Of a stretch of 64,000 nucleotides of DNA, positions 12,598 through 17,037 are shown piece by piece. The DNA comes from Thermogutta terrifontis (lineage in GTDB: Bacteria > Planctomycetota > Planctomycetia > Pirellulales > Thermoguttaceae): contig NZ_CP018477.1 in assembly GCF_002277955.1 (NCBI RefSeq), positions 3,989,206-4,053,205 on the forward strand, in the 5' to 3' direction. The notes below the pieces were generated by a model, which saw only the letters and a program-made list of their open reading frames with translations, was not told where the DNA came from and did no database searches. The first letter of the stretch is position 1; each line of letters opens with the position of its first letter. The position numbers were made by a program, and so were the translations under genes.

Positions 12598-13668
12598 TTA
12601 ACCGGCCTGCTGCGGCCGAACCTGCTGGGTAACCGGGACACCCATCCGGGCGATTGCCGACCGCATCTCGGTATCCGCCTGGATATTCTTCAACCGGTAA
12701 TAATCCATGATTCCCAGTTTGCCTGACTCGAACGCTTCCGCGATGGCTCGCGGAACTTCGGCCTCGGCCTCCACGAGTCTTGCCCGGGCTTCTTCGATCA
12801 GGGCCAAATTCTCCTGCTCGGCGGCGACGGCCATGGCCCGACGACCTTCGGCCTTGGCCTGTGCCACCCGCATATCAGCTTCTGCCTGATCGGCCTGAAT
12901 CCTCGCGCCAATATTCTGGCCTACGTCGATGTCGGCAATGTCGATGGAGACAATCTCGAAGGCCGTCTGGCGGTCCAGGCGTCGCGCCAGCACGGCCTTG
13001 GAAATCCTGTCGGGATTTTCTAGAACCTCGTAGTGGCTTTCAGCGGAGCCGATGGCGCTGACGATGCCTTCACCTACCCGGGCGATGATGGTTTCTTCCG
13101 TGGCCCCGCCGATCAACTGCAGAATGTTTGCCCGGACAGTCACACGTGCCTGCACTTTGAGCTGGATGCCGTTGCGGGCGACGGCTTCCAGGGCTTCCTT
13201 GCCGGAGCCCTTCTTGGGGCAGTCGATCACTTTGGGATATACGCTGGTCTGTACGGCCTCAAGAACGTCTCGACCTGCCAGATCGATTGCCGTGGCCAGC
13301 CGAAAATCAAGCTCCGTCATTTTGGCGTTCCGTGCCGCGATCATAGCACGAATCACTTTGTTGACGTCGCCTCCGGCCAGATAATGGGCCTCCAGCGCTC
13401 GCGTGGTGACGCCGTCTTTCTCTGTGATGCCGGCCTGCACCGCCATAATTTTTGCACGAACAATCACCTCGGGCCGGACTTTTCTAAACGTCATACCCAG
13501 CAGGTCGAGGATTCCGATGCGGGCCCCGGTCGTTTTCGATTGAATCCATAGACGAAAGAACTTGAAGAAAACCGCCAGAAACACCAGTGCCACGATAATC
13601 GCGGCAAGGATGAGCACGAAGCCGATAATCTGGAAGATATCTTGGTTTTGCTGGGCAATCGGGAGCAT
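12598..13668 (-). CDS. floA: Flotillin-like protein FloA
   Basis: 356 residues from the ATG at 13668, which has AAGGAAAGG just upstream. The longer frame from 13713 has no such signal. One N-terminal membrane segment (about residues 12-36) is followed by the FloA/UPF0365 core: [20 protein letters not shown], then the SPFH-like domain with [16 protein letters not shown] and [15 protein letters not shown]. An Ala/Glu-rich coiled coil follows (about 265-325). The family organises membrane microdomains that host protease and signalling complexes. It is normally encoded next to NfeD proteins, and two NfeD genes lie directly upstream here. Length is close to that of Bacillus FloA. Confidence 0.93.
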
Positions 13669-13853
13669 CTCGCAACCCTTTCCTTGTGTTCTCGGCAGAC
13701 AAAAGCTGAACATGCAGTGCTACATTGCGGTCATCAACAGCTTTCGCGACAGCTTTTCAATTCTAGCCACATTCCGTTGTCATTGAGCCCCACCAAAGTC
13801 AATTCCACCCGTCCTGAAGCACGTTTCGTGTTTGATGGGTATTCGACTCGTTC

Positions 13854-14444
13854 TCACGCAGTAGCAAATGGATCCAGACCAATTTCGTCGATCGGCTTTT
13901 CACGCCAGTTTTCGCCGGGCTGTTGCTCCGGCTTCTGGTCAACAGGCTGTTCCCCCTCTTCGAGTTTGCGGACCGTAATCCAGGAACCAAAAACGTTCAC
14001 CACACGCACCCATTGATCCGCTTCGATCGGAAAACCATCGCTGACAGCATCATAGGACCGGCCATCGATGACGACCACCCCCGCGGGCAACATCGGACTT
14101 TTGGTTTTGCCCACCCGTCCCACAAGGCTCCGCAACTCGCGAAGCTTGGGATTATCCGGGAGACACGCCTCCACCTGGGGCGGCGGAAGCATCACCCGCT
14201 TTCCTACCGGTGTTTTGGGCCAGAGATAAACCGCCAGAATGACAAACGCAGGGATACCGAAGACGCTAACAAGAAGCAAAGCGACGCCCAAACCGGTGCT
14301 GTACATGAAACCGGTGGCAATTGCCCCCACGACAGCACACAAGGAGAGGAAAGTCAGAATGCCGTGAGAAACAAAAAACAGCTCAAGAATAGCCAGGAAC
14401 AAGCCTGTCAGCATCAGCAGAACCGGCCAAAGCCACGTGTTCAT
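13854..14444 (-). CDS. Short NfeD-family membrane protein
   Basis: 196 residues. Three to four N-terminal membrane helices (about residues 5-75) are followed by the link LWPKTPVGKRVMLPPP and an OB-fold domain (about 103-160) with LVGRVGKTKSPMLPAGVVVI. The OB part parallels the C-terminus of the long NfeD upstream. The tail is Gln/Glu/Pro-rich and ends IDEIGLDPFATA. Short NfeD proteins pair with flotillins and are thought to modulate SPFH assemblies through the OB fold. It lies between the long NfeD gene (259-base gap) and floA (185-base gap) on the same strand. Confidence 0.88.
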   Translation of the reverse strand: MNTWLWPVLLMLTGLFLAILELFFVSHGILTFLSLCAVVGAIATGFMYSTGLGVALLLVSVFGIPAFVILAVYLWPKTPVGKRVMLPPPQVEACLPDNPKLRELRSLVGRVGKTKSPMLPAGVVVIDGRSYDAVSDGFPIEADQWVRVVNVFGSWITVRKLEEGEQPVDQKPEQQPGENWREKPIDEIGLDPFATA

Positions 14445-14703: not shown

Positions 14704-17037
14704 TTACGGCACTTGGGGACGAACATAGACACGGTTGCCACGCACCTCGGTGACCACGACCGGAGTGCCCGGATCGATCGGATCTCCATCCTGCGAGATA
14801 ACGTCGAGAATTCGCTGGCCGAAACGGGCCTTACCGCTGGGTAACAACTTTGTGACCGCGACGCCTCGTTGCCCCACAAATGATTCGTCAATGTCCAGAA
14901 GGCTTCGCCGTCGAAGCATATCTTCCGCCTCATTTTCGGACGGAGGAGCAAGCATGAGGTGCTTAAGACCAGGAGTTTTAGGCAGCCACCGATTGATGAA
15001 CGCCAGGACCACGCCGATTCCGATCGCTGCGAAGAGAAGAATCAAAAGGGACTTTTGGAGCTGAAGCCATTGGTAACTATTTTGCGGAACGATGAACGTT
15101 TGACTGGCCAGCACCAAAGAGGCCACAATCAGCAGTCCGCCCCCCAGCCCGAAGATGCCGAAGCCGGGTAGCACAAAGATTTCCAGAAGCAGGCAGCTAG
15201 CCCCCAGCAAAAAGAGAAGGACCTCCAGCCACCCGGCCGTCCCTCCGAGAAACCGGCTCCAGAAGAACAGCACGAAACACACCGCCGCCAGGAATCCCCC
15301 GATTCCGATTCCCGGTGTCTGTACTTCCACGAGTAAGGCCACCCCGCCTATGATCAGGAGAAGCACGGCAATATACGGCGAAGAAAGCGCCCGCAAGAGA
15401 GTATCCACCCAGGTGGGTTCCAGAAGAGCAGGATCGTTTTCCAGCCCGTACAGTCCCTTGAACTCAGCGAAGCTTTCGACGAGGTCCCGTGACAGACCGT
15501 ATTCTACTGCTTTCGCGCCGTCCACCTGCAAAGGTTTACCTTTTTCTTTGACCAGGTCTTTTTTCTCCCACTCGTTTTTGTCGGGTAACTGCGCCCATTC
15601 CTCCTCCGACATGTAGTCAGCAAAATCGGGCATCCCCTTGCGCACGTATCGGAACAATTCGACATTGGGGTCTACCAGCGAAAGGGGGAGCGACCAGGTG
15701 CGACCAGTGCGTTTGGCGATCACTTCCCGCACGACGCGCCTGATTTGGAGAAGGTCATCCTCGGTAGGCACCGCGTTTCCTTCTCCCCCCAGCAAGGCTC
15801 CGGGAGCCATAATGATCTGGTCGCAGGCGACGGCGATCAATGCGGCGTCCGCCAGCGCGCGGGAGGGAATATAGGCAACCGTTCGAACTTTTTGCGAATC
15901 CAAATCGGCAGCTAAATACGAAGCGAGTTTGAGTGACTCACGTGGCGAACCTCCCTCACTGTTGATTCGAACACAGACGAAGTTGGCCTCTTTTCGCTGC
16001 CTTGCTTCTTCGATGAGTCGTTGAGCACGCTCGACCAATGCTGGAGTGATGGGGCCCTCGATGAGGACCTGAACAGCCCGCCAGTGATCCGCGACGAATC
16101 GCTCTTCCTGGACGAGATTGGCGCGAAGTCCCAGGGCGGCATAGAGTTCTCGCGCATCGGCAACGGTGCTGCTGATCAAATCCAGCGCCCGCGATTCACG
16201 ACCCGTCAGCCGCCCGAGCTGTCCCGCTGGAAACACTACACTTGGAGCGCCGCGTAAAGTCCGCGTTTTTCGTATTTGCTCCAGCTCATCCGGTGTGACG
16301 AAGAGCCGTTCGGTATCGGTCTCGACCTGGAGAACGGTTCGGGACGGATCCAGCATTCCCAGTGCCACCGCGACGGGGATACTGCGGCGGCGTTCGGCGA
16401 TGTGCCGATAGGCGCTTTGCATCGGGGGCGTGATCCGCCGCTCGGCAATCCCCGCAGCACCCCATTCTGCCTCCGGGGCCATGTAAATCTCGTCACACGC
16501 AATGATGACGAGCACGGCGTGGCCCTCCGCTCGATAAGGAATGTAGGCCACGGTTTTAATGCCGGAAAGGCTCTCGCTCGTGAGAAAATCTGCAAGATCA
16601 TAGCAGGCTCCAAATTCACTTCGTGCCGCGTAGGCCTCTTCACCCTTGTTGGTATCGAATCGCAGAATGAAAACGAGTTTGTCTTTTTGACCTTTGAAAT
16701 TATCGATCAGCCGGAGGATGAGCTGCTTCACCCGGGCACCACTTGGACCGGTGATAGGCAATTGAATGGGGATCAGCCGGCCAATCATCCCGGGACCGAC
16801 GTTGTCCCCCTCTTCCCCTGGGTCGGAAGGGGGCCCGTCACCGGATGGGGCTTCCGCGAAGAGGACTGCTGGAAACGTGGCCGTGATGGAGGCACGAATC
16901 TGAGCGAAACCGGCCTGCTGAAACGCGCCGATTCCCACAAGCGCCGTGACAGGGATTAATAACGCCAAAAGATGGCGCACGATCCATCCTCCTCCGAAAA
17001 ATCGTCGCTCGTTTGTCCGTAACCCCTGCAAACTCAT
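14704..17037 (-). CDS. Long NfeD-family protein with two ClpP-like domains, membrane region and OB fold
   Basis: 777 residues. An N-terminal hydrophobic segment (about 18-40) is followed by a first ClpP/crotonase-like domain (about 95-235) and a second (about 325-525). Several membrane helices follow (about 553-682), then a C-terminal OB fold (about 718-775, FVGQRGVAVTKLLPSGKARF). In catalytic NfeD homologues a Ser nucleophile sits 14 residues before the conserved MAP. The matching positions here are Gly172 in domain one and Ala396 in domain two. Both domains therefore look proteolytically inactive, although the fold-specific strings VAYIP, ACD.I.MAP and INSEGGSPRES are kept. Most long NfeD proteins have one ClpP-like domain. 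It heads the flotillin block. The GG-rich membrane part and OB fold are otherwise standard. Confidence 0.9.
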   Translation of the reverse strand: MSLQGLRTNERRFFGGGWIVRHLLALLIPVTALVGIGAFQQAGFAQIRASITATFPAVLFAEAPSGDGPPSDPGEEGDNVGPGMIGRLIPIQLPITGPSGARVKQLILRLIDNFKGQKDKLVFILRFDTNKGEEAYAARSEFGACYDLADFLTSESLSGIKTVAYIPYRAEGHAVLVIIACDEIYMAPEAEWGAAGIAERRITPPMQSAYRHIAERRRSIPVAVALGMLDPSRTVLQVETDTERLFVTPDELEQIRKTRTLRGAPSVVFPAGQLGRLTGRESRALDLISSTVADARELYAALGLRANLVQEERFVADHWRAVQVLIEGPITPALVERAQRLIEEARQRKEANFVCVRINSEGGSPRESLKLASYLAADLDSQKVRTVAYIPSRALADAALIAVACDQIIMAPGALLGGEGNAVPTEDDLLQIRRVVREVIAKRTGRTWSLPLSLVDPNVELFRYVRKGMPDFADYMSEEEWAQLPDKNEWEKKDLVKEKGKPLQVDGAKAVEYGLSRDLVESFAEFKGLYGLENDPALLEPTWVDTLLRALSSPYIAVLLLIIGGVALLVEVQTPGIGIGGFLAAVCFVLFFWSRFLGGTAGWLEVLLFLLGASCLLLEIFVLPGFGIFGLGGGLLIVASLVLASQTFIVPQNSYQWLQLQKSLLILLFAAIGIGVVLAFINRWLPKTPGLKHLMLAPPSENEAEDMLRRRSLLDIDESFVGQRGVAVTKLLPSGKARFGQRILDVISQDGDPIDPGTPVVVTEVRGNRVYVRPQVP

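What the first reader, a model, noticed from the sequence alone, without database searches (positions are those of the whole stretch)
14704..17037. NfeD protein with two tandem ClpP-like domains, both apparently without the Ser nucleophile
Counting back from the conserved MAP motif, the catalytic Ser position reads Gly172 in domain one and Ala396 in domain two. Two degenerate copies in one protein suggest a scaffolding or substrate-binding role in the flotillin complex rather than proteolysis.
Basis: partly seen in the sequence, partly recalled or inferred. Interest (0 to 1): 0.58.

Follow-up and report, generated by a model that had tools for sequence, protein, structure and literature searches.

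The report
Flotillin-partner NfeD with two dead proteases
This bacterial membrane protein, made next to a flotillin gene, carries two copies of a protein-cutting domain that have both lost the residues needed to cut but are still strongly conserved, so the family has apparently swapped protein cutting for another job such as binding or holding proteins.

Summary
Confirmed. The 777-aa minus-strand gene (17037..14704) encodes an NfeD1b-type protein with two ClpP-fold domains (D1 86-310, D2 311-540), five membrane helices and a C-terminal OB domain, in an operon with a short NfeD and FloA. Both domains align over full length with single-domain NfeD1b and match solved 1510-N (PH1510) at Z 18-19. 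The Ser97 column reads Gly172 and Ala396; the Lys138 column is Pro205 in D1 (hhalign) and Asp427 in D2 (MAFFT). No conserved Ser/Lys dyad lies elsewhere. The survey corrects the emphasis. Gly in D1 is universal among 141 tandem proteins of the class. In D2 the decisive loss is the Lys plus about nine residues of the loop before it, shared by the window's whole order (column Lys in 1 of 104), whereas Ser still stands in 17 of 104. A sister family keeps Ser+Lys in D2 (29 of 32), and single-domain forms keep both (26 of 26). Both dead domains are under strong purifying selection (dN/dS 0.05 and 0.07). This is a maintained, order-wide tandem pseudoprotease: a new variant of NfeD1b. A non-proteolytic role is well supported; peptide holding by D2 and scaffolding by D1 are inference, and the ClpP parts probably face away from cytoplasmic FloA.

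The parts
14704..17037 (-). Long NfeD (NfeD1b-like), 777 aa, two ClpP-fold domains, membrane domain, OB domain
   Evidence: ORF; Pfam NfeD_membrane 93.2 bits, NfeD1b_N 63.6, NfeD 47.9
16927..16983 (-). N-terminal hydrophobic segment, aa 19-37 (signal peptide or first membrane helix)
   Evidence: hydropathy peak; helix 19-34 in the model, low pLDDT
16108..16782 (-). D1, first ClpP-like domain (aa 86-310), no Ser, no Lys, no Gly-Gly motif
   Evidence: hhalign E 4.5e-33 to the NfeD1b reference set; 1510-N Z 18.5; PF25145 22.2 bits
16522..16524 (-). Gly172 at the nucleophile column of D1
   Evidence: Gly in 104 of 104 order, 32 of 32 f6, 2 of 2 f7, 3 of 3 f8 tandem proteins; codon GGC
16519..16521 (-). 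His173, near-invariant in the order next to the lost Ser of D1
   Evidence: 103 of 104 in the order, 2 of 32 in f6, 3 of 3 in f8
15418..16107 (-). D2, second ClpP-like domain (aa 311-540), no Ser, no Lys, loop before the Lys column shortened, Gly-Gly motif kept
   Evidence: Pfam NfeD1b_N 326-418; hhalign E 1.1e-50; 1510-N Z 18.9
15949..15954 (-). Gly362-Gly363, the retained Gly-Gly motif of D2
   Evidence: G362 99 of 104, G363 103 of 104 in the order
15850..15852 (-). Ala396 at the nucleophile column of D2
   Evidence: order: Gly 63, Ala 24, Ser 17 of 104; codon GCG
15754..15759 (-). Asp427-Asp428, where the catalytic Lys column falls (427 by MAFFT, 428 by a count from the following helix)
   Evidence: Lys in 29 of 32 f6, 10 of 10 single-domain order paralogues, 16 of 16 outside the class, 1 of 104 order tandem
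14983..15417 (-). Membrane domain (aa 541-685), five helices
   Evidence: Pfam NfeD_membrane 555-680; helices 554-573, 579-597, 601-621, 628-648, 654-687
14707..14895 (-). C-terminal OB (NfeD) domain, aa 715-777
   Evidence: Pfam NfeD 718-774
13854..14444 (-). Short NfeD, 196 aa, OB domain and membrane part, no ClpP domain
   Evidence: Pfam NfeD 44 bits; found near the long gene in 47 of 80 relatives
12598..13713 (-). FloA flotillin, 371 aa
   Evidence: Pfam FloA 480 bits; NCBIfam FloA 488 bits
11866..12549 (-). 227-aa ORF of unknown function downstream, possibly same transcript
   Evidence: no family above cut-off; related ORF found only in L174 of 80 loci

Best explanation
The gene encodes a membrane pseudoprotease of the NfeD1b type. 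Shown by sequence: two ClpP-fold domains lie in tandem, both without the Ser-Lys dyad of 1510-N, and both are kept by selection. Shown by comparison: D1 has Gly instead of Ser in all tandem proteins of the class examined, while D2 lost its Lys and about nine residues of the loop before it once at the base of the window's order, after which the now useless Ser drifted to Gly or Ala, in Thermogutta to Ala396. Inferred: the ClpP pair sits outside the cytoplasm. D1 serves as a structural partner that pairs with D2, in place of the homodimer of 1510-N. D2 keeps a groove with its Gly-Gly edge and holds peptide segments or unfolded envelope proteins without cutting them. The five-helix domain and the cytoplasmic OB domain tie this sensor or holder to the FloA assembly.
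For: Both domains are full-length relatives of NfeD1b protease domains. Dyad columns were anchored on PH1510 and on its S97A and K138A mutant chains. Ser and Lys are jointly kept in 29 of 32 f6 tandem proteins and jointly lost in the other 3; both kept in 10 of 10 single-domain order paralogues and 16 of 16 outside the class; Lys column non-Lys in 103 of 104 order tandem proteins. Ser-to-Lys-column spacing is 30-32 in 90 of 104 order proteins against 39-41 in 30 of 32 f6; deleting residues 126-133 of that loop abolished 1510-N activity (PMC3795559, passages). No Ser, Lys or His column conserved at 80% or more in D1 or D2 of the order except H173 and S360. dN/dS 0.047 (bootstrap 0.019-0.089) in D1 and 0.068 (0.035-0.11) in D2 against 0.844 in the N-terminal stretch. 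Order tandem proteins form one clade (SH-aLRT 100). Gly-Gly of D2 is kept.
Against: No biochemistry was done. In one genus of the same family (3 of 3 genomes examined) the homologue lacks both ClpP domains, so whatever they do is dispensable there. floA was not found in 27 of 62 loci with room downstream. Peptide binding by D2, pairing of D1 with D2, and the topology are inferences. One order protein (L119) has Lys in the Lys column, with Gly at the Ser column. One f8 protein has Lys without Ser.
Confidence: 0.6

Rival explanations
1. The tandem is still an enzyme with a composite site as in E. coli SppA, where one domain gives the Lys and the other the Ser.
For: E. coli SppA, itself a tandem of ClpP-like domains, is the best Foldseek match over D1 plus D2 (E 4.5e-11). 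That its Lys and Ser lie in different domains is recalled.
Against: Neither nucleophile column holds Ser in the window. No Lys column reaches 80% in D1 or D2 of the order. The D1-D2 placement fits SppA badly (rmsd 19 over 326-331 residues).
Confidence: 0.04
2. D1 has a new, non-proteolytic catalytic or ligand-binding site built on the near-invariant His173, Cys181 and Tyr210.
For: H173, C181 and Y210 each in 103 of 104 order proteins, although the protease residues around them are gone. The ClpP/crotonase fold hosts other chemistries; an enoyl-CoA hydratase is a weak profile match of D2 (E 0.0078).
Against: His173 is absent in most of f6 (2 of 32); Cys181 could simply be a core residue, as D2 has its counterpart C405. 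No ligand evidence. D1 probably lies outside the cytoplasm, away from CoA substrates.
Confidence: 0.12
3. The ClpP domains are passive spacers or oligomerisation modules with no binding function.
For: A genus of the same family has the membrane and OB part without them. 1510-N itself is a dimer (PMC3795559, passages).
Against: Constraint on both domains is close to that on the membrane and OB parts. The Gly-Gly edge of D2 is kept although a spacer would not need it.
Confidence: 0.22

Closest known systems
1510-N, the ClpP-like domain of Pyrococcus horikoshii PH1510 (PDB 2deo, 3bpp, 3viv, 6m4b)
   Same: Fold of both domains (Z 18-19), position before an NfeD membrane and OB part, operon with an SPFH protein
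   Different: 1510-N has the Ser97-Lys138 dyad and the loop 126-133 and cuts its stomatin partner (PMC3795559, abstract and passages); here two domains, no dyad, shortened loop in D2, partner is FloA
NfeD1b family next to SPFH5 (YqeZ-YqfA/FloA of Bacillus subtilis), Hinderhofer et al. 2009 (PMC2636767)
   Same: Domain order and FloA partner; SPFH5 reported as mainly in Chlorobi, Firmicutes and Planctomycetes, with a ClpP-motif partner (passages)
   Different: The passages seen describe a single ClpP protease motif and no loss of catalysis
Tandem long NfeD of class relatives ('f6', probably Planctomycetales; name inferred)
   Same: Same tandem architecture, Gly in D1
   Different: D2 keeps Ser and Lys in 29 of 32, so it could be an active protease
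E. coli SppA (PDB 3bez, 3bf0)
   Same: Two ClpP-like domains in tandem in a membrane protein
   Different: Active by a dyad split between the domains (recalled); no NfeD membrane and OB part
FloA-NfeD of Staphylococcus aureus (PMC11222466)
   Same: NfeD OB domain pairs with FloA; complex stabilises unfolded proteins without ATP
   Different: That NfeD has a mass of 26 kDa and no ClpP domain is mentioned in the text searched

Membership tests
NfeD1b (long NfeD) | ClpP-like N-terminal domain | tested here: met
   Pfam PF25145 63.6 bits; hhalign and structure matches for both copies
NfeD1b (long NfeD) | NfeD membrane domain and C-terminal OB domain | tested here: met
   PF24961 93.2 bits, PF01957 47.9 bits
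NfeD1b (long NfeD) | Operon with an SPFH-family gene | tested here: met
   FloA two genes downstream on the same strand; conserved in 35 of 62 relatives with room
NfeD1b (long NfeD) | One ClpP domain only | tested here: not met
   Two; usual in the class, as 141 tandem proteins were collected there
1510-N type Ser-Lys membrane protease | Ser97 equivalent | tested here: not met
   Gly172 and Ala396
1510-N type Ser-Lys membrane protease | Lys138 equivalent | tested here: not met
   Asp427 in D2, Pro205 in D1
1510-N type Ser-Lys membrane protease | Proteolytic activity | not testable with these tools
SppA signal peptide peptidase | Dyad split between two ClpP-like domains | tested here: not met
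   No Ser at either nucleophile column, no conserved Lys
FloA-NfeD holdase complex | OB domain binds FloA | not testable with these tools
   OB domain and FloA present; binding not tested

The most novel reading that the evidence does not exclude
A whole bacterial order has turned the flotillin-associated NfeD protease into a tandem pseudoprotease that works outside the cytoplasm as an ATP-independent peptide sensor or holdase wired through the membrane to FloA. The order in which catalysis was lost (D1 first, then the Lys and its loop in D2, then the Ser) is readable in living relatives, and D1 has acquired a new conserved site around His173.
Probability: 0.25. Interest if true: 0.68.

Novelty: new variant of a known kind. 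Interest (0 to 1): 0.42.

Why it matters
What the ClpP part of long NfeD does beside bacterial flotillins is open. The only activity of such a domain met in the papers read here is cleavage of a stomatin by 1510-N. A large lineage that keeps the fold under strong selection after losing every catalytic element argues that the domain has a second, non-proteolytic role, and sister lineages with intact dyads provide natural controls. It also warns against annotating such proteins as serine proteases from the fold alone.

Tried and rejected
Single-sequence PDB search with the window protein found no ClpP relative; profiles were needed. NCBIfam gave only matches below cut-off (SppA, SDH, phage head maturation protease). 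A fold of D1 alone without an alignment gave pLDDT 42.6 and was not used. Independent-pair testing of Ser against Lys loss had too few pairs differing in Lys to be significant (median p 0.5), so co-loss rests on counts of related sequences and on the tree, not on that test. The tree is a quick LG+G4 search with SH-aLRT only; L069 and L071 are long branches. A composite SppA-like site and a dyad elsewhere were looked for and not found. Composition, promoters, terminators, repeats and RNA families were not examined. Searches for print on this variant: 'NfeD' with 'Planctomycetes' 2 papers, with 'ClpP-like' 0, with 'pseudoprotease' 0, with 'tandem' and 'serine protease' 1, with 'slipin' 3; of these only passages of PMC2636767 and PMC2605481 were read, none on tandem or inactive NfeD seen. 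The library holds only openly licensed papers.

Rows dropped: L002 and L055 (parts of loci already held) before the alignment of 171; L159, L160, L161 (no ClpP domain) and L169 (fragment) before the state counts and tree of 167. Order relatives broken at contig ends (for example G319, G341, G345, G349, G357) were not fetched. Relatives outside the class were the best-scoring ones only, 16 loci fetched out of the many rows, so 16 of 16 is not a random sample; that set of 16 includes L063, itself tandem. The 26 of 26 is 10 order paralogues plus these 16. The reference profile left out L063, L069, L070 and L071.

Full report
What is there. The gene runs on the minus strand from 17037 to 14704 and encodes 777 aa. 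Pfam finds the NfeD membrane domain at 555-680, the NfeD1b N-terminal domain at 326-418 and the NfeD OB domain at 718-774. Downstream on the same strand lie a short NfeD of 196 aa, FloA of 371 aa (480 bits) and a 227-aa ORF without a family. The genome is one contig of 4,810,751 bases with two long-protein matches in the self-search, the gene itself and the short NfeD, and only these two OB-domain genes.

Two ClpP-fold domains. D2 is obvious from Pfam. D1 is not seen by hmmscan but is hit by the same model in the genome scan (22.2 bits), aligns with the NfeD1b reference profile over 204 columns at E 4.5e-33 and with D2 at E 4.3e-36, and in the predicted structure (80-sequence alignment, pLDDT mostly above 90 in D1 and D2) matches 1510-N at Z 18.5, as D2 does at Z 18.9. 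The best Foldseek match over both domains is E. coli SppA, another tandem.

The catalytic columns. In ten single-domain relatives Ser113 and Lys153 of the alignment are invariant and 40 residues apart. The profile aligns them to PH1510; the wild-type chain 2deo has Ser and Lys there, 6m4b has Ala at the Ser and 3bpp Ala at the Lys, matching the known S97A and K138A mutants (PMC3795559, abstract and passages). In the window the Ser column is Gly172 in D1 and Ala396 in D2, and the Lys column is Asp427 in D2 by MAFFT (Asp428 if counted back from the following helix) and Pro205 in D1 by hhalign (numbered). An internal control in the same genome supports the counting rule: the SDH-type protease ORF in L254 keeps Ser 14 residues before its corresponding Met. 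No alternative dyad exists: of all Ser, Lys and His columns conserved at 80% or more in D1 and D2 of the order, only H173 and S360 appear.

Survey. One search examined 294 genomes of the phylum (236 with a match) and 117 of the order (110 with a match). I aligned 171 proteins and counted states in 167. D1: Gly in 104 of 104 order proteins, 32 of 32 f6, 2 of 2 f7, 3 of 3 f8. D2 in the order: Gly 63, Ala 24, Ser 17 of 104; Lys column Lys in 1 of 104, in a protein with Gly at the Ser column. D2 in f6: Ser and Lys together in 29 of 32, both lost in 3. f7: neither in 2 of 2. f8: neither in 2, Lys alone in 1 of 3. Single-domain paralogues in the window's own order: both in 10 of 10. Outside the class: both in 16 of 16. 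The spacing from the Ser to the Lys column is 30-32 residues in 90 of 104 order proteins, 39-41 in 30 of 32 f6, 10 of 10 order single-domain and 14 of 16 outside; eleven order proteins have 42-90. The shortening falls in the loop whose deletion (residues 126-133) abolished 1510-N activity. Order tandem proteins form one supported clade; the single-domain order paralogues form a separate clade nearer to f6; Lys needs at least 6 changes on the tree and Ser 15. The simplest reading is D1 dead first, then Lys and loop lost at the base of the order, then Ser drifting. Within the window's genus the 55-57% relatives L175 and L176 still have Ser at 396, as does the same-genus L072.

Kept by selection. 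Between the window and its 94% relative, dN/dS is 0.047 (bootstrap 0.019-0.089) in D1 and 0.068 (0.035-0.11) in D2, near the membrane domain (0.026) and OB domain (0.017 to 0.027), while the N-terminal 84 residues give 0.844 (0.415-2.06). So these are not decaying domains. D2 keeps Gly362-Gly363 (99 and 103 of 104); D1 has no such motif but keeps His173, Cys181 and Tyr210 at 103 of 104 each.

Against a simple story. Three genomes of one genus in the same family (G250, G329, G381) have a homologue with the membrane and OB parts and no ClpP domain, although FloA is still in those genomes, at another place. floA was found in 35 of 62 relatives with more than 2 kb downstream, and a short NfeD in 47 of 80. 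Two genomes of the family without a match to the long protein (G385, G389) also lack FloA, while a third (G361) keeps a FloA.

Topology and mechanism, inferred. One N-terminal hydrophobic segment, then D1 and D2, then five helices, then the OB domain. With a positively charged N-terminus inside, D1 and D2 lie outside and the OB domain inside. In S. aureus the NfeD OB domain is cytosolic and binds FloA, and the complex stabilises unfolded proteins without ATP (PMC11222466, passages). The most likely reading is a pseudoprotease that binds but does not cut, linked through the membrane to FloA. Catalytic death is near certain by sequence; the holding function is my inference.

Novelty. Known parts in a new arrangement and state: tandem, dead, order-wide, conserved. 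I saw no description of it (openly licensed papers only). Hinderhofer et al. describe the operon and the ClpP motif of the FloA partner (PMC2636767, passages). A 2008 survey of prokaryotic serine proteases lists single Clp-NfeD architectures in three archaeal proteins (PMC2605481, passages).

Noticed in passing
L148, L149, L151-L158 (family f5 of the order): The D2 loop before the lost Lys column is replaced by long insertions, many Pro- and Gly-rich (spacing up to 90 residues against 30-32 in most of the order).
   Followed up: no
L159, L160, L161 (genomes G381, G329, G250): Genus of the window's family whose long NfeD has membrane and OB parts but no ClpP domains; FloA lies elsewhere in the genome.
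   Followed up: partly
L049, L052, L162-L168, L170: Single-domain NfeD1b paralogues with intact Ser and Lys coexist with the dead tandem form in some genomes of the order; in the tree they group with f6, not with the tandem clade.
   Followed up: partly
Own genome C1:2757593-2758486: Second FloA-like gene (425 bits) although the genome has only the two NfeD OB genes, both in the window operon.
   Followed up: no
L063 (G042, outside the class): A tandem NfeD1b with Gly at the D1 Ser column and Ser-Lys in D2 outside the class, so the tandem may be older than the class or have arisen twice.
   Followed up: no
L219 (JABMRB010000410.1): Record labelled Candidatus Nealsonbacteria carries a tandem NfeD-FloA operon of the window's kind; probably a misbinned contig.
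   Followed up: no
Genomes G330, G333, G362: Two full tandem long-NfeD copies in one genome; not checked whether real duplicates or assembly copies.
   Followed up: no
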